Shown here in pieces: positions 6,681 to 34,471 of a DNA stretch of 37,210 nucleotides (the first letter of the stretch is position 1; the number at the start of each line of letters is the position of its first letter). Below the pieces are notes generated by a model. That model saw only the letters and a list, made by a program, of their open reading frames with translations. It was not told the origin of the DNA and did not search any database. A program made the position numbers and the translations under genes. Source of the stretch: a virus; the IMG/VR virus record IMGVR_UViG_3300009149_000117, positions 1-37,210 of that record; one strand, 5' to 3'.

Positions 6681-6760
6681 GACACTCTCCTATTTATCTC
6701 TTTTCTTTTCATTAATTGTTGGTCTCTAAAAAATGGTTTTCTATAGCATACGAGAATATT

Positions 6761-7024
6761 TTATTTTATACCTTCTTTATAACACTTTTCAGAAAAAGAA
6801 TTAAATCCTTTCATATATTTAGCGAGCCTTTCTCTAACACTCTCAAAGGTTTCATTCATTGAGAAACTAATAAGTTTTTTCATTGCAGGAGAATTTAATT
6901 CTTGTTTAGTCATTTTCACCGATGCTTCAAAAGGAACTTTTGCAACTGCTCCATAAACGATTTGAAGTCTCTTTCCCTTTTTCTGTCTTCTGACTTCTTT
7001 TGGGTGAGTTAATGTGATTTTCAT
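6761..7024 (-). CDS. Hypothetical protein, paralogue of 17442-17720
   Basis: An 87-residue protein counted from the ATG at 7024, which follows AGGTAGGTG; the GTG three codons earlier is unlikely because the paralogue starts at the matching ATG. About 58 of 87 residues match the protein at 17442-17720, including the first 15 (MKITLTHPKEVRRQK), AVAKVPFEASV, MNETFE and ERLAKYM. The family is unknown to me. The shape suggests a short beta sheet followed by a long amphipathic helix. Confidence 0.65.
   Translation of the reverse strand: MKITLTHPKEVRRQKKGKRLQIVYGAVAKVPFEASVKMTKQELNSPAMKKLISFSMNETFESVRERLAKYMKGFNSFSEKCYKEGIK
6979..7024. repeat. Exact 46-base match to 17675-17720
   Basis: The 5' end of this gene is identical over 46 bases to the 5' end of its paralogue. 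A second identical stretch of 28 bases lies in the middle of both genes (the part coding KVPFEA). Confidence 0.85.
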
Positions 7025-7033
7025 TTTTAACAC

Positions 7034-8849: not shown

Positions 8850-10733
8850 TCAGACCATATAGACCGAGGACTCCACAAATTGGCTTGCTGCATAAGTTGC
8901 GAGGGCGAGGCTATCCCCATAATCATCCTTCGCAGACCTATCATCTAAGTTTGCATGACAACTCATCAAACCTGATAACTTATACTCTTTTTCCAGTTCC
9001 ATCATTTGCTGCTTAAATCTCAAATATTCTTTTGCAAACTTTGGTGGTGGAAACTTTGGCCAATGAATTTTGCCTTGTTGAATTAAATTCTGTAAATGTT
9101 TATATATCTTATCTTTATGCTGAATATCAAAACTAATACCCACAACTGGCAATCCTGCTTGAGCTAATATATCAAGAGGAGCCAAGCCAATAGGTGAACT
9201 ATCAATGTATATGGCTTTCATTCTTGGGTGAAATAAATTCTTAATAAATCCAATCTGCTCGGTGAAATCTGTTCCCTGTAACTCCCACCATCCGACAACG
9301 TAGAGGTGTTCGGGATTATCTGGGTCTTGCCTTACCTCTGTAATAACAGTTGAATCCCGTAAGCGGGCAACATCAATCCCAAGAAATTCGCCCCGCAATG
9401 GTTTTCCTTCCGTATCATCGAAATCATAATGGAAACAGCATTTTTCCCATTCCTCATCAGACAGAAACATTCCTATATTGGATTTTTCCCAACTTAATTC
9501 ATACTGGGCTGCAAAGGATATTGGGTCGTCTGCTTTTCTTGCCAATACATAATCCCTGTCCAAAATAGGGCACTTATCCCAAGGATATAGATGTTGTCTA
9601 TACCCAAATGGATTGGTTTCAGGGTCGTATATATTTCTAAATGCTTTATGAAAATGCGTTCCCCTAACTCCAGGGACACCACATTGAATAATTTTAGCCC
9701 CACCCTGAACTGCACCACCCATTGGTAGTATCGATTGAGAAACTTTATAGGGAGAAATTGATTGTGAATTACTTACAATGAAATTATTAGCAATATATGT
9801 ATGGTTGTCTTTTACTTCAATATCATAAACATATTTATTTTTTGAATTAATTATTTCTATACTTTCTATTTTACCATACATTGGTTTATGTCTCCTAATT
9901 TTTTGAGTTTCTAATTCTCTTTTATCACCACATTTCTCAGAGCAAGTTTTACATTTAGAGGTTCTGGGATGAAAAGGTTTGTCACAGATAACACATTTGA
10001 AGGTTCTGGAATTATGTTTTTTTAACCTTCTTATTTTACCTAATTTTTGTTCTGCTATTCTTTTACATTTTTTGTTACCACAAATTATTTGATGATTTCG
10101 ATAAATCTCAAATTTTTTATCGCAATATTTACATTTTTTATGCTTAATTGGGCATAGTTTTTGTAGTTTATATTTCATGGAAGATAATAAATGAGGCTTA
10201 ATTAATTTATAAAATCTTCGTAAATTATTTCCAGTAAAAACCAATATATAATATAATTTTCCGAATTTTGGATATTTTCTTATTTCTGCAATGATACTAA
10301 ATCGTTGTTTTAAAAAATCACATAGAATTTCTAAGTCTTTCTTAGTAAAACATTGGGTATTTAGTGTATTTCTATACCCATCATCCATATACCATACAGC
10401 AAGAGATAGCGAAGTCATTCCTTTGAGCCACTCTTTAGATATTATTTTTTTAGGTTTATATATTTTTCCATAGTATATTTTTAATTCTGGAAAGCACTTA
10501 GTTTGAATACGATACATTATCTTACCACAATTATATGCCCCTTTTCCTGTAATATACTTACCAATAGCAGGATTCAAATTTCTCAACTCTTTGAATAACC
10601 ACTTTATATAAGGATACTGCTTTTTACAGTGGTTTATTGTTAGTCTTGAATTTGCGTTATTGGTTTGGGGCTTCTCTAAATTACCATCGCCCAACATTGT
10701 CCCAATAATTATAGCCTTTAATCGTTTATTCAT
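8850..10733 (-). CDS. terL: Terminase large subunit, C-terminal part, preceded by intein C-part with LAGLIDADG endonuclease
   Basis: A 627-residue ORF. Residues 1-322 are intein: GTMLGDGNLE (11-20) and AVWYMDDGY (112-120) are the two LAGLIDADG helices, cysteine pairs at 201-270 form extra zinc fingers, and YVYDIEVKDNHTYIANNF..VSN (301-322) are splicing blocks F and G. Ser323 is the +1 nucleophile. Residues 323-627 are the terminase nuclease domain: FLGIDVARLRDSTV (catalytic Asp), AIYIDSSPIG, and DDYGDSLALA near the end, an RNase H-like fold that cuts DNA at packaging. The ORF starts at an ATG overlapping the stop of the N-terminal ORF (ATGA); its own frame is closed five codons upstream. The two halves make a 463-residue terminase once spliced. 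Confidence 0.9.
   Translation of the reverse strand: MNKRLKAIIIGTMLGDGNLEKPQTNNANSRLTINHCKKQYPYIKWLFKELRNLNPAIGKYITGKGAYNCGKIMYRIQTKCFPELKIYYGKIYKPKKIISKEWLKGMTSLSLAVWYMDDGYRNTLNTQCFTKKDLEILCDFLKQRFSIIAEIRKYPKFGKLYYILVFTGNNLRRFYKLIKPHLLSSMKYKLQKLCPIKHKKCKYCDKKFEIYRNHQIICGNKKCKRIAEQKLGKIRRLKKHNSRTFKCVICDKPFHPRTSKCKTCSEKCGDKRELETQKIRRHKPMYGKIESIEIINSKNKYVYDIEVKDNHTYIANNFIVSNSQSISPYKVSQSILPMGGAVQGGAKIIQCGVPGVRGTHFHKAFRNIYDPETNPFGYRQHLYPWDKCPILDRDYVLARKADDPISFAAQYELSWEKSNIGMFLSDEEWEKCCFHYDFDDTEGKPLRGEFLGIDVARLRDSTVITEVRQDPDNPEHLYVVGWWELQGTDFTEQIGFIKNLFHPRMKAIYIDSSPIGLAPLDILAQAGLPVVGISFDIQHKDKIYKHLQNLIQQGKIHWPKFPPPKFAKEYLRFKQQMMELEKEYKLSGLMSCHANLDDRSAKDDYGDSLALATYAASQFVESSVYMV
9768..10733 (-). mobile_element. 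Intein C-part (LAGLIDADG domain plus C-terminal splicing blocks)
   Basis: Codes for residues 1-322 of the downstream terminase ORF. It ends in Val-Ser-Asn before Ser+1. The penultimate residue is Ser rather than the usual His, a known but less common variant. The joined extein reads ..HIILLEE-SQSISPYK.., an uninterrupted terminase Walker B region, which fixes the boundary. Confidence 0.85.
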
Positions 10734-11509
10734 CGATATAATACCCTATCCGATTTGAAGAGATTTTTAGCTTTAATTAATCCCCTCTTTGTCATAACTT
10801 TATGTTCACCTGTGCATTTCAATACTCTAATTCCTTTTTCAGTTTTTATCTTTATCTTGTATAATTTACCACTATATAAGGGTTTTTTAAAATAATTAAC
10901 TATTCTCTTTTTTTCAATTTGACCAGTTTTTTTATTGTAAGACATTATTTTTAAGGGAAGTTTTTTTTCTACGATTTCTTTGATAGTTTTTTGATAATGC
11001 TGGTCAATAGAGATTTTTGTTTTACCATCAACACATTCTTCTAATAAAATGATATGAACTGTAAGCCCCTCGATTTCTGCATTTCTCGATGCTGTTACTG
11101 CTCTTATTTCTGTTCCATTAGCGAATTTGATTCTATCGGCTTTATCTACTACAATGGCACCAGCATAAATATTATAGGGATTATTATGAATAAAACCAGA
11201 AAACCTGTCAAAACTAATTTGTGCCTGTTCTAATTTTGGTGCAAAAATGTAGAAATGAATATTGTCATAAAATATAGGCAATATGGCACAGGCGAGTGCA
11301 ATCACTTCCGTTTTTCCTGCCTGTCTTGCTGTTGAGAATAAAACTCGCTTAACTTTTGGGTCTAAAAAATCTCTCAAAGCATACCACTGATTGGGATATA
11401 GTTTGCGACCAAAGAAATTATAGACAAAAGCTCGCAGATTATAGCAGTCTTTCCTTTTGCTTAATATCTTGGTTAGCCATATTTGTCGCTCAGATTTACT
11501 TAGTTTCAT
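10730..11509 (-). CDS. terL: Terminase large subunit, N-terminal ATPase part, followed by intein N-part
   Basis: A 259-residue ORF. Residues 1-158 are the start of the terminase packaging ATPase: Walker A STARQAGKTEV (59-69) and Walker B VHIILLEE (151-158). At Cys159 an intein begins and the ORF ends 101 residues later with TGA. The missing C-terminal ATPase strand and nuclease lie in the next ORF, whose ATG overlaps this stop. The insertion point, right after the catalytic Walker B glutamates, is a highly conserved site favoured by inteins. Without splicing in trans, this fragment cannot package DNA. Confidence 0.9.
   Translation of the reverse strand: MKLSKSERQIWLTKILSKRKDCYNLRAFVYNFFGRKLYPNQWYALRDFLDPKVKRVLFSTARQAGKTEVIALACAILPIFYDNIHFYIFAPKLEQAQISFDRFSGFIHNNPYNIYAGAIVVDKADRIKFANGTEIRAVTASRNAEIEGLTVHIILLEECVDGKTKISIDQHYQKTIKEIVEKKLPLKIMSYNKKTGQIEKKRIVNYFKKPLYSGKLYKIKIKTEKGIRVLKCTGEHKVMTKRGLIKAKNLFKSDRVLYR
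10733..11035 (-). mobile_element. Intein N-part (N-terminal splicing blocks)
   Basis: Codes for residues 159-259 of the upstream terminase ORF. It starts with Cys159 (CVDGKTKI, block A) and contains block B (LKCTGEHKVMTKRG), then stops after FKSDRVLYR just where a contiguous intein would pass into its endonuclease domain. Confidence 0.85.
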
Positions 11510-17441: not shown

Positions 17442-17720
17442 TTATTTCGCCTCCTTTAATGTTCTACCTTTTTTATATAACTTTTCAGAAAATCTATCAA
17501 ATCCCCCCATATATTTAGCAAGTCTTTCTTTAACCAATTCAAATGTCTCATTCATTGCGAAATTAGTTAGCTCCTGAAATGTAGGAGAACTTATATCTTG
17601 CATAGCTACATTTACTGACGCTTCAAAAGGAACTTTTGCAACTGCTCTATAAATTACTTGAAATTTCTTTCCCCTTTTCTGTCTTCTGACTTCTTTTGGG
17701 TGAGTTAATGTGATTTTCAT
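17442..17720 (-). CDS. Hypothetical protein, paralogue of 6761-7024
   Basis: A 92-residue member of the same family as the protein at 6761-7024: identical in MKITLTHPKEVRRQK, AVAKVPFEASV, MNETFE and ERLAKYM, and different mainly in the middle and in a five-residue C-terminal extension. GAGGTAAG is upstream. The two copies lie about 10.5 kb apart in the same operon and orientation. Confidence 0.65.
   Translation of the reverse strand: MKITLTHPKEVRRQKRGKKFQVIYRAVAKVPFEASVNVAMQDISSPTFQELTNFAMNETFELVKERLAKYMGGFDRFSEKLYKKGRTLKEAK
17675..17720. repeat. Exact 46-base match to 6979-7024
   Basis: Second copy of the shared 5' coding sequence of the paralogue pair. Confidence 0.85.
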
Positions 17721-17726
17721 CTTACC

Positions 17727-30661: not shown

Positions 30662-33600
30662 TTAATCCTCCTCGAATTTATCGGGCTCGACCATCGAACC
30701 CCATCGTTCACCAATTTTAATATCCACATCTAAAGGAACTTTAAATCCCTCTGGTGCTTTTGACATTTCCTCTTTTATTATCCCAGAAACTATGTCAATT
30801 TCTGAAACTTCAAGGACTATATCATCGTGAATAGTTAATACAATTTTAGACTTGCTATTTATTTTCTTTAGTCGCTTATATATCTCAATCATTTGTAGCC
30901 CAATAATATCTGATGCTGTGCCTTGGACAGAAGTTGCCACCACTTTCCTTTCTTCCTTTTCACGCAATTCTTTATTTTTATCATTGATAAATGGCAAAGG
31001 TCTTTTTCTACCAAACCAGTTTTTAACATATCTATGAGTTCTTGCTCCAATTATCACAGCCCTATTCCACCTTGATGCCCTTGGATAAATCTGGTTAAAG
31101 TATCTTAACTGTTCCTCTGCTTCTTCTACTGTTAATCCATACTGTTCTGCAATTGCTTTCGCACCACGCCCATAAGGGATGCCAAAAACAAATGGTTTGC
31201 TTTTATCACGCTGTTCTTTAGTAACATCTTCTTCTTTTACTCGGTATAATCTTGTGGCAGTAATAGTATGAATATCTTTACCACTTTTAATATCTGCTAT
31301 CATTCTTTGGTCTGCTGATAAATGTGCAAGAACTCTGAACTCGATTTGACAATTATGATTAATAAAACCATTACTAATGTATGTTAAGGTATTGGGGATT
31401 GATAAATCATAAACATGTTTTTTACCAATAAATTCTATTTTAGTAATTTTATCAAATATTTGATTAAATTTAGTTATGTGATATAACCCCAAAGATTTTG
31501 CTATTTGCGGATATTTTCTTGAAATTTTATATGCTAACTTCAAACTAATTTGGCGGCCTAATGAAGAAGTATTGTTTAATAATTTTTGTACTTTTCCTTT
31601 AAATTTAAAATCTAATGCCTTATTTTTAAGATTGGGCATTCCCCCATAAAATGAGCTATAACCAACTTTTTTACTTAATAAAAAAAGTTTTTGTTTTTTT
31701 CTTTTAGAAATAAAATTTACTCCCTTTTGAAATCTTTTTGTAAAAGCAGTTGGGATAGTAATATAATAAATATATTTATGGTTACTATAAAATCCAGCTT
31801 GACTATGATTAAACTTGTTTCTTCTTGATGGAATATTTAACAGTAATAATAATTGTTGTACTTCTTTAGCTAAATTTTCAGAGATAGTTGAAAAAGATAC
31901 TCTCCCACCTTTCAAGTTATTGCTCTGAACACTACCATCAGCTTCAAATAATCCTCTTAAATAGGCAGCAATAATATCAAAAGAAGCTACCCATAAATAT
32001 TTAGGTACACTCTTTTTAGATGCTCCTATATTACATAGCCATTTTAACAAGGGTTTGCTATGAATTCTTAAATCTATAGCTCCCTTTCTTTCTTTGTCTT
32101 TATCTATAATAATCTTGAATAATTTTTCAATTAATAATTCCATTTTTTTAATTAAATCTATATCCTGAGAACACAATGTTAATTTAATATCTTGTGAACC
32201 CAAAGATCCATCCCCTGTTAGATAACCCATAAATTGAGCCAAATCTGTATTAACTATTTTTGGAACAGACACAATTTTATTATTAAAATGATTAAAAATT
32301 ATTTTGGGAAGAGTTAATTTTTTCTTTTGAGCAAAATATTTTCTAGGTTGAATAACTACATAATCTTTATTTCTATCAATCTTATTAATATCTTTCCAAA
32401 TATATTCGCCTTCTTTATTCAATATCCTAATTCGATGAGTTTTTGTCGCTTCTAATTCATATCCCATATTAGTTGTAATTTTAATCGTATCTTGAAATCC
32501 TTGATCTATTATTTTTGATACCAAAGATAATTTATTGTTATTATCAGTATAAACCCTATCTCCCACACAAATATTTTGGATTGGTATTAGTCCTCGTATT
32601 GTAGAAATCTTTGAATCTTCGGGTAAACAAGAATCAGCTGACAATAATTTATATCCCTCTTTCGCTATAAAACAATCTCGGAAATCCTTACCATATTCTT
32701 TCGGAACATTTTGCAAATTTGGTTTACTTGAGCTTAAACGACCAGTCGCTGTAATATGCTGATTATATTCTGTATGTATTCTATCATTTTCATCTAAGCC
32801 CTCAAATGTTGGGCAGATATAGGTATTATACATTTTTGTCAGTCTTTTATATTCAAGTATTAAATTTATAATTGGGTGCTTATCCTTTAATTTTTCCAGC
32901 GTCTTTTTATCAGTTGAAAGGGCTGTTCCTTTTTTAGTTTTCTCTGGTTTAGGCATTTTCAAAGCTCGGTAAAATAAATCTGCTAATTGCTGATGTGAAT
33001 TAAAATTAAACTTGGGTCGTTCCACCTTATCCAAATATTCCTTTAGAGAACATCGTTTTTTTATTATTTTAGAATCCTGATATTTCTTTTTCTGCTTATC
33101 TACTGCTATTTTATACTGCTTATTAGTAACAGATTTAATCTCTGCGATAGCATATAATTTAGTTTCAGTTTCTTTCAAATTGTTGCCATACTTGACCTTT
33201 AATTGTTCTAATTTTCGCCTGTCAATCTGGACACCATTTAATTCAATACTCGCCAATACAGTAGATTGTGGAAGCATTATCTTATATAAAACAAATTCCA
33301 TTTTCTCTTTCTTAATCTGTGGCAATAATTTACGATAAATCCTAAATGTGCAATCAGCATCGGCACAGGCATATTGCAATATATCATCATAATGTTCCTT
33401 AATATATTTAAGGTTTCCAAATTTGCTCGCATCTATATTTTCGGAGTAGTTACCCATATCTGTATATGTCCAAGCCATTTCTTTTAATTTGTGACTTGAC
33501 CGTTGACCACTCTGATTTAAGACATAGTGAGCCAACATAGTATCAAAATTAATCCCAACTCCAATGCCTAAATGATACTTGAACCACTGTATATCGTGTT

Positions 33601-34471
33601 TGCCATTTTGAAATATCTTTTTGACACCTTTACGAGAAGTAAACTCGCCAAACTTTTTCAATATCCAACTATATTGTGCATTGTTCCAGCACCGCTTTAA
33701 ATTTCTGTCCAATATAGGTAAAACTATTGCTGTGTTACTTTTCCAAGAAAATGATATGCAAAGCAACTTACCATTGTAAGGTCGCAAGCAAGTAGATTCT
33801 GTGTCAATCGTTACCTCTTTTACCTGAGCCAATCTCGAAAATAATGCCTTAACTTTATTCATATTATCACAAACCACATATTTAATTGGTGAAACTTTCC
33901 GCTTAATTGGATTTTTAGTTTTGCTGGCTTCTTTAACAAACTTGAGGGCATTGATAAATTTTTCCCTAACCTCCATATTATCCTGATTTCTAATGATATA
34001 ACTGGGATGTATTAGGGGGATACAAGTAACCTGAAATTCATCGCTCCAAAATGGTTGCCCCTGATACTTTAGTGAGCCAGTTTTGCCCAGAACCTGTTTC
34101 ATCGCTATGTTGCCGAGAAGCCCGATGACATTAGGTTTGATAGAGTTTATCTCGTTTACCAAGAATTCTCGGCAGGCTTTCAGCTCTTTAGTATTCGGGT
34201 CACGGTTATCTGGTGGTCGGCAACGACAACTATTGCTCAAAAATATCTCGGCTCGATTTATCCCTGCCTCTTTCAAACATTTGTCCAGCTCTTTGCCCGC
34301 CTTGCCCACAAATGGCTCTTTCTTAAATAGCTCATCATTTCCAGGAGCCTCACCAATGAGCATAATTTTGGCAGATTTAGAGCCGCAACCAGAGAGGCAG
34401 ATTACCTTGTGCTTTTTATCGTTTGTGAAACTCGTTAAATATAAGGGACATTTTGTGCAGTATATGGACAT
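30662..34471 (-). CDS. Uracil-DNA glycosylase / DNA polymerase I fusion, interrupted by an intein
   Basis: A 1269-residue protein. Residues 1-165 are a family 4-type uracil-DNA glycosylase: GEAPGNDE (40-47), HPSYIIR (155-161) and four cysteines (5, 8, 84, 100) fit for a 4Fe-4S cluster. Residues about 195-390 are the 3'-5' proofreading exonuclease: DTE (223-225), NGKHD (289-293) and YACAD (367-371). The family A polymerase follows: motif A LLSADS (609-614), cut by an intein (615-1040), then CQIEFRVLAHLS; motif B R1088..K1092...F1096...Y1100; motif C IHDD (1214-1217). Phe1096 matches E. coli Phe762. No 5'-nuclease domain. GAGGTAAG precedes the ATG. It is surely the replicative polymerase. Confidence 0.95.
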   Translation of the reverse strand: MSIYCTKCPLYLTSFTNDKKHKVICLSGCGSKSAKIMLIGEAPGNDELFKKEPFVGKAGKELDKCLKEAGINRAEIFLSNSCRCRPPDNRDPNTKELKACREFLVNEINSIKPNVIGLLGNIAMKQVLGKTGSLKYQGQPFWSDEFQVTCIPLIHPSYIIRNQDNMEVREKFINALKFVKEASKTKNPIKRKVSPIKYVVCDNMNKVKALFSRLAQVKEVTIDTESTCLRPYNGKLLCISFSWKSNTAIVLPILDRNLKRCWNNAQYSWILKKFGEFTSRKGVKKIFQNGKHDIQWFKYHLGIGVGINFDTMLAHYVLNQSGQRSSHKLKEMAWTYTDMGNYSENIDASKFGNLKYIKEHYDDILQYACADADCTFRIYRKLLPQIKKEKMEFVLYKIMLPQSTVLASIELNGVQIDRRKLEQLKVKYGNNLKETETKLYAIAEIKSVTNKQYKIAVDKQKKKYQDSKIIKKRCSLKEYLDKVERPKFNFNSHQQLADLFYRALKMPKPEKTKKGTALSTDKKTLEKLKDKHPIINLILEYKRLTKMYNTYICPTFEGLDENDRIHTEYNQHITATGRLSSSKPNLQNVPKEYGKDFRDCFIAKEGYKLLSADSCLPEDSKISTIRGLIPIQNICVGDRVYTDNNNKLSLVSKIIDQGFQDTIKITTNMGYELEATKTHRIRILNKEGEYIWKDINKIDRNKDYVVIQPRKYFAQKKKLTLPKIIFNHFNNKIVSVPKIVNTDLAQFMGYLTGDGSLGSQDIKLTLCSQDIDLIKKMELLIEKLFKIIIDKDKERKGAIDLRIHSKPLLKWLCNIGASKKSVPKYLWVASFDIIAAYLRGLFEADGSVQSNNLKGGRVSFSTISENLAKEVQQLLLLLNIPSRRNKFNHSQAGFYSNHKYIYYITIPTAFTKRFQKGVNFISKRKKQKLFLLSKKVGYSSFYGGMPNLKNKALDFKFKGKVQKLLNNTSSLGRQISLKLAYKISRKYPQIAKSLGLYHITKFNQIFDKITKIEFIGKKHVYDLSIPNTLTYISNGFINHNCQIEFRVLAHLSADQRMIADIKSGKDIHTITATRLYRVKEEDVTKEQRDKSKPFVFGIPYGRGAKAIAEQYGLTVEEAEEQLRYFNQIYPRASRWNRAVIIGARTHRYVKNWFGRKRPLPFINDKNKELREKEERKVVATSVQGTASDIIGLQMIEIYKRLKKINSKSKIVLTIHDDIVLEVSEIDIVSGIIKEEMSKAPEGFKVPLDVDIKIGERWGSMVEPDKFEED
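31352..32629 (-). mobile_element. Intein with LAGLIDADG endonuclease in the DNA polymerase
   Basis: Residues 615-1040 of the polymerase ORF (426 residues). Block A is CLPEDSKISTI, block B ELEATKTHRIRI, the endonuclease helices are FMGYLTGDGSLG (747-758) and YLRGLFEADGSVQ (837-849), and the end is HVYDLSIPNTLTYISNGF..NHN with Cys+1. It lies between the catalytic Asp of motif A and the rest of that motif, so polymerase is dead until splicing. All splicing residues look intact (Cys1, block B T-x-x-H, His-Asn, Cys+1). Confidence 0.93.

What the first reader, a model, noticed from the sequence alone, without database searches (positions are those of the whole stretch)
8850..11509. Large terminase broken in two inside an intein, with ATGA coupling: possible natural split intein carrying its endonuclease on the C-half
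The N-terminal ORF holds Walker A, Walker B and intein blocks A and B; it stops with TGA. The next ORF starts at an ATG overlapping that TGA by 3 bases and holds two LAGLIDADG motifs, zinc fingers, blocks F and G and the terminase nuclease. Joined exteins read HIILLEE-SQSISPYK without a gap, and the two intein parts sum to 423 residues. The downstream frame is closed five codons before its ATG and no slippery heptamer is seen. Most split inteins have lost the endonuclease or carry it as a separate gene; here it stays fused to the C-part. If real, DNA packaging depends on protein trans-splicing.
Basis: partly seen in the sequence, partly recalled or inferred. Interest (0 to 1): 0.88.

Follow-up and report, generated by a model that had tools for sequence, protein, structure and literature searches.

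The report
Terminase split inside an endonuclease-bearing intein
In this environmental phage the gene for the DNA-packaging motor is cut into two overlapping genes in the middle of a self-splicing protein insert, so the motor can probably only be made if the two proteins find each other and splice together, and unusually the insert's DNA-cutting enzyme is still joined to the second half.

Summary
On the minus strand, TerL-N (11509-10730, 259 aa) ends in a TGA that overlaps the ATG of TerL-C (10733-8850, 627 aa). N carries 158 aa of terminase plus a 101-aa HINT N-half. C carries an I-SceI-like LAGLIDADG_2 endonuclease, two zinc-like motifs, the HINT C-end (Asn322) and 305 aa of terminase. A second assembled contig (99.95% over 19 kb, 10 SNPs, no gaps) has the identical break, so it is not a sequencing error. 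I found intein-free orthologues (71% identical): the joined exteins match them over exactly 463 residues with no gap, which fixes both splice junctions. All splicing residues and the terminase catalytic residues are present, and the terminase shows no rate acceleration. The break lies at the canonical HINT/endonuclease boundary with no lost or junk residues. Related orthologues carry either no intein or a contiguous intein 11 residues downstream; no contiguous version of this intein was found. Best reading: a canonical-site natural split intein that acts by trans-splicing and retains its endonuclease on the C-half. TerL split inteins are already known (AceL-, GOS-TerL); the fused endonuclease is the new point. 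Not shown: splicing itself, or that the split is old.

The parts
11036..11509 (-). TerL N-extein, 158 aa: Walker A (ARQAGKTE) to Walker B (IILLEE)
   Evidence: gap-free match to intein-free orthologues L282/L283; 38% to phage G gp1
10733..11035 (-). Intein N-half (HINT-N), 101 aa: block A Cys1, block B CTGEH
   Evidence: Pfam Intein_splicing; homology to contiguous inteins L002, L007, L122 runs to the last residues before the stop
10730..10733 (-). ATGA: stop TGA of the N gene overlapping start ATG of the C gene
   Evidence: identical in the second contig G006
10744..10747 (-). AGGG, possible Shine-Dalgarno, 10 nt upstream of the C-gene ATG
   Evidence: weaker than most start sites in the window
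10212..10715 (-). LAGLIDADG_2 homing endonuclease domain (C-half residues 7-174), motifs IIIGTMLGDG and LAVWYMDDG
   Evidence: E 4.5e-30; aligned with I-SceI and its solved relatives
9930..10133 (-). Two Cys-rich zinc-like motifs (C-half residues 201-223 and 247-268)
   Evidence: sequence; no Pfam match
9768..9878 (-). Intein C-end (HINT-C): block F YDIEVKDNHTY, block G IVSN, Asn322
8853..9767 (-). TerL C-extein, 305 aa, +1 Ser; nuclease acids D290, D347, D439/D440 in joined numbering
   Evidence: residues invariant against orthologues, phage G and HGTV-1

Best explanation
This is a canonically split class 1 intein in the large terminase gene of an environmental tailed phage. Two polypeptides are made from one message: TerL-N with IntN (101 aa), and, by start-stop coupled initiation at ATGA, IntC with TerL-C. 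Here IntC begins with a complete I-SceI-like LAGLIDADG endonuclease and ends in the HINT C-strands. The HINT halves associate; Cys1 and Ser+1 carry out the acyl shifts, Asn322 cyclises, and a 463-residue terminase is released. The endonuclease leaves as part of IntC and could still cut intein-free terL alleles. Shown: the two genes, the break, the residues, the splice boundaries, the empty orthologous sites. Inferred: translation of the C gene, assembly, splicing, endonuclease activity.
For: Break identical in a second contig differing at 10 sites. Joined exteins 463 aa, 71% identical and gap-free with intein-free L282/L283 and with the intein-removed L280; 52% with intein-free L288. The N-half ends and the C-half starts at the HINT/endonuclease boundary without lost or extra residues. 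IntN of 101 aa matches the roughly 100 aa of typical natural split inteins (PMC11923092). Catalytic residues C1, TxxH, block F D and H, N322, +1 S, Walker A and nuclease acids kept. No acceleration of TerL against orthologues: 37 vs 30 changes, chi2 0.7. 3 of 4 SNPs in the gene pair are synonymous, against 0 of 6 elsewhere (small numbers). Without joining, the ATPase fold is cut just after Walker B, so separate halves should not work (inference). [quoted passage not shown]
Against: No splicing data. No diverged relative has the same split; the two contigs are near-identical. All about 17 distinct comparable inteins with this endonuclease type and both HINT ends visible are contiguous. IntN is strongly basic (+21) and HINT-C about neutral, not the opposite charges described for inteins split at this site (PMC11923092), which suggests a recent split. 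The start signal of the C gene is only moderate.
Confidence: 0.62

Rival explanations
1. A recent frameshift in an ordinary contiguous intein has inactivated terL; the sampled genomes are defective or a doomed lineage, and the clean ATGA is luck.
For: All comparable inteins and the intein of the sister phage TerL are contiguous; no charge adaptation to a split state; no diverged relative with the break.
Against: The break is in two contigs that differ at 10 sites. All splicing and terminase residues are intact. A random indel would rarely fall in the ~18-codon linker (about 4% of 423 codons) and meet an in-frame start-stop overlap (7 of 19 linkers), so roughly 1%. No other frame break among window genes alignable to relatives.
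Confidence: 0.17
2. The split is real and splicing works, but it is only a recent neutral frame break tolerated because co-translated HINT halves splice anyway; it is not an evolved split intein and may revert.
For: Same as above on recency; artificially split inteins often splice when co-expressed (PMC11923092).
Against: Cannot be separated from the best explanation with present data except by age; it is a narrower version of it.
Confidence: 0.13
3. Programmed -1 frameshifting (or other recoding) fuses the two frames, so a contiguous intein precursor is made and spliced in cis.
For: The C frame lies -1 to the N frame and is open for four codons before the ATG.
Against: No X XXY YYZ slippery heptamer in the few overlapping codons; the ATG sits exactly at the endonuclease boundary and overlaps the stop, as coupled genes do elsewhere in this window.
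Confidence: 0.06
4. Assembly or sequencing error in a contiguous gene.
For: Metagenome contigs only; reads not available here.
Against: Identical 60-base junction in a separately assembled contig with 10 SNPs; no homopolymer at the junction.
Confidence: 0.02

Closest known systems
AceL-TerL and GOS-TerL natural split inteins (PMC11766414)
   Same: Natural split inteins in a phage-type large terminase, found in metagenomes; trans-splicing shown
   Different: Atypical split site (IntN 25 and 37 aa, IntC 104 and 115 aa), no endonuclease; here the split is canonical (IntN 101 aa) and IntC carries an endonuclease
Fractured genes (Dassa et al. 2009, paper not held; examples AceL NrdHF PMC7891396, MIJ3 PolB PMC6892783)
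   Same: Phage gene broken by a split intein at the endonuclease insertion site, with an endonuclease at the break
   Different: There the endonuclease is a separate ORF between the halves (GIY-YIG, HNH); here a LAGLIDADG endonuclease is in frame with IntC and the C-extein
Contiguous LAGLIDADG_2 inteins (L002 aminotransferase, L122 LigD phosphoesterase)
   Same: Same order HINT-N, LAGLIDADG_2, HINT-C; 30-32% identity over about 290-300 residues
   Different: One reading frame
Artificially split PI-PfuI with endonuclease (cited in PMC7090010)
   Same: Trans-splicing with an endonuclease domain still present on a split intein
   Different: Engineered, archaeal RIR1 intein
Free-standing rRNA-intron endonucleases of Patescibacteria
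   Same: Closest endonuclease sequences (up to 37%); many have a Met within a few residues of the position of the C-half Met
   Different: Not in inteins

Membership tests
Intein (class 1) | HINT splicing domain with blocks A, B, F, G and nucleophiles Cys/Ser1, C-terminal Asn, +1 Cys/Ser/Thr | tested here: met
   C1, CTGEH, YDIEV..NH, N322, S+1
Intein (class 1) | Insertion in a conserved site of an intact host protein, absent in other alleles | tested here: met
   gap-free intein-free orthologues
Natural split intein | Halves encoded by two separate genes, split between blocks B and F | tested here: met
Natural split intein | Protein trans-splicing activity | not testable with these tools
   needs expression
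Natural split intein | Split conserved among diverged relatives (supporting, not strictly defining) | tested here: inconclusive
   only the near-identical contig shares it; the other alleles are intein-free or have a contiguous intein at another site, so no diverged copy of this intein exists to test
Natural split intein | Complementary charge of the halves (capture and collapse; typical, not strictly defining) | tested here: not met
   IntN +21, HINT-C -1
Fractured gene arrangement | Free-standing endonuclease ORF between the two split-intein genes | tested here: not met
   endonuclease is in frame with IntC; genes overlap by 4 nt
LAGLIDADG_2 (I-SceI-like) homing endonuclease | Two LAGLIDADG-type motifs with active-site Asp | tested here: met
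   LGDG and WYMDDG aligned with LGD and WFMDDG of the 6x1j chain
Large terminase (TerL) | Walker A, Walker B, RNase H-like nuclease acids | tested here: met
   Walker B Asp is Glu (LLEE), seen in 3 of 94 aligned relatives

The most novel reading that the evidence does not exclude
A natural split intein that still carries a potentially active homing endonuclease fused to its C-half: a mobile split intein, and an intermediate between contiguous endonuclease inteins and the endonuclease-free split inteins, in which the endonuclease's own start region became the start of IntC.
Probability: 0.45. Interest if true: 0.72.

Novelty: new variant of a known kind. Interest (0 to 1): 0.58.

Why it matters
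Natural split inteins are thought to arise when an endonuclease-bearing intein gene breaks at the endonuclease site, but those described in the papers I could read have no endonuclease in the split protein or have it as a separate gene. An allele caught with the endonuclease still in frame with one half would document the step from contiguous to split. The same phage group holds intein-free, contiguous-intein and split-intein terL alleles, so homing and splitting can be compared directly. If it splices well, it is also a new canonical-site split intein in an essential packaging enzyme.

Tried and rejected
Sequencing error: rejected by the identical junction in a second contig. Frameshift-prone assembly: rejected, no other frame break among window genes alignable to relatives. 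Slippery heptamer: none in the overlap. Intron at the break: no room, the genes overlap by 4 nt. Relaxed constraint on terL: relative-rate test shows none; dN/dS could not be used because synonymous sites are saturated. Walker B Glu as a sign of decay: rejected, Glu also occurs in 3 of 94 aligned relatives. Second terL in the group: search of the 106-kb relative G004 gives one gene only. Same intein in sister phages: not found. Searches with single halves or broad terminase profiles found only the twin contig and distant terminases; the useful relatives came through the DNA polymerase. Survey of WYMDDG inteins for other C-half-only ORFs: four candidates, all cut by the end of the locus. Structure prediction not run: a monomer model cannot show assembly of the two halves.

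Full report
What is there. On the minus strand two ORFs share an ATGA: 11509-10730 (259 aa) and 10733-8850 (627 aa). The first is a terminase ATPase part that ends after Walker B (IILLEE) and continues with CVDGKTKIS..., a HINT N-half of 101 residues. The second starts MNKRLKAIIIGTMLGDG, a LAGLIDADG_2 endonuclease (Pfam E 4.5e-30, residues 7-174), passes through two Cys-rich motifs and HINT-C (VYDIEVKDNHTYIANNFIVSN) and continues with the rest of the terminase (phrog_2 and phrog_5909). Each half alone scores below the Pfam cut-off for Intein_splicing (31.1 and 28.5 bits, cut-off 35.8); joined they score 64.6 over the whole profile. The break falls between profile positions 92 and 100.

Is the break real. 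The only near-identical contig in IMG/VR, IMGVR_UViG_3300024262_000305, matches over 19,001 bases at 99.947% with 10 mismatches and no gap, and its junction is identical. The junction is not a homopolymer. Window genes that can be aligned to relatives are otherwise in single frames. An assembly error is very unlikely. Four of the ten SNPs lie in the gene pair and three of those are synonymous; the six elsewhere (five codons) all change the protein. The one-sided exact chance of that is about 0.03, and the numbers are too small to lean on.

Relatives. Direct searches found only the twin contig and distant terminases. The DNA polymerase of the window (30662-34471) led to relatives at 76-89% identity, and in one of them (G004, 106 kb) to a terminase about 70% identical. 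A two-sequence profile then gave five loci and a four-sequence profile one more. The terL alleles are: intein-free in L282, L283 (71% identical) and L288 (52%); a contiguous 362-aa LAGLIDADG intein after residue 169 in L280/L284/L286; and the split intein after residue 158 in the window and its twin. With inteins removed, ours, L282, L283 and L280 are all exactly 463 aa and align without a gap. Our terminase is the more diverged allele (71% against 89-93% among the others), but Tajima-type counts with L288 as outgroup show no acceleration (37 vs 30, chi2 0.7). Walker A and the nuclease acids are kept; Walker B Asp is Glu, as in 3 of 94 aligned relatives.

Where the break lies. In the contiguous inteins L002 and L122, with the same order of domains, HINT-N passes into the endonuclease through a short linker (SDQLITNYLQPNPYQRELILGTMLGD in L002). 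Ours reads SDRVLYR, stop, and MNKRLKAIIIGTMLGD: nothing conserved is missing and nothing extraneous is added. Free-standing endonucleases of the same family in Patescibacterial rRNA introns often have a Met within a few residues of our Met, so the C-half begins much as a free endonuclease gene would. In 19 ORFs examined, an in-frame start-stop overlap lies in the linker in 7; with the linker at about 4% of the intein, a random indel would give such an arrangement in about 1% of cases (inference). Either selection kept a rare functional outcome, or this was luck.

How it works (inferred). Start-stop coupling gives both polypeptides. HINT halves assemble; Cys1 attacks at E158, Ser+1 takes over, Asn322 cyclises, and the exteins join. 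The N-extein stops just after Walker B, so the ATPase fold is incomplete without joining, and terL is essential for a tailed phage. Inteins artificially split at this position often splice when co-expressed (PMC11923092), and PI-PfuI works in trans with its endonuclease present (PMC7090010). The penultimate Ser in place of His is also found in the contiguous relatives L007 and L122.

Limits. Splicing was not observed. The split is not shared by any diverged relative, so its age is unknown. IntN is very basic (+21) and HINT-C neutral, unlike the opposite charges described for inteins split at this site (PMC11923092). About 17 distinct comparable inteins are all contiguous; four HINT-C/endonuclease ORFs lacking HINT-N were all truncated by locus ends. 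A recent break, functional or not, is therefore possible.

Known versus new. Split terminase inteins are known (AceL-TerL, GOS-TerL, PMC11766414), with an atypical site and no endonuclease. Fractured genes have the endonuclease as a separate ORF (AceL NrdHF with GIY-YIG, PMC7891396; MIJ3 PolB with HNH, PMC6892783; Dassa 2009 itself was not held). I found no report of a natural split intein with the endonuclease fused to IntC, but the library holds only open papers. I file it as a new variant of a known kind.

Noticed in passing
window 31352-32629 (-): The DNA polymerase (30662-34471) holds a contiguous LAGLIDADG_3 intein of about 426 aa (C615-N1040) that the relatives covering the site (L270-L273) lack; it is not close to the terL intein.
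   Followed up: partly
window 30662-34471 (-): The polymerase is a fusion of a uracil-DNA glycosylase-like domain (residues 30-177), a 3'-5' exonuclease and DNA polymerase A.
   Followed up: no
L280:6948-9425 and L280:4528-6486: The sister phage has a contiguous 362-aa intein in terL 11 residues downstream of ours and another intein in its methyltransferase gene; its glycosyltransferase part has an interruption between 4458 and 4528.
   Followed up: partly
L007:4001-4465: A mini-intein in a helicase of phage record LR745208 sits directly after the Walker B DE, the equivalent place to the terL site, and is about 31% identical to both halves of our intein.
   Followed up: no
window 6759-7027 and 17455-17723: Two small genes are about 80% identical DNA repeats of each other.
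   Followed up: no
L093-L119 (genome contigs): Patescibacterial contigs carry two or three of these LAGLIDADG_2 endonucleases about 1 kb apart, in what look like rRNA introns.
   Followed up: no
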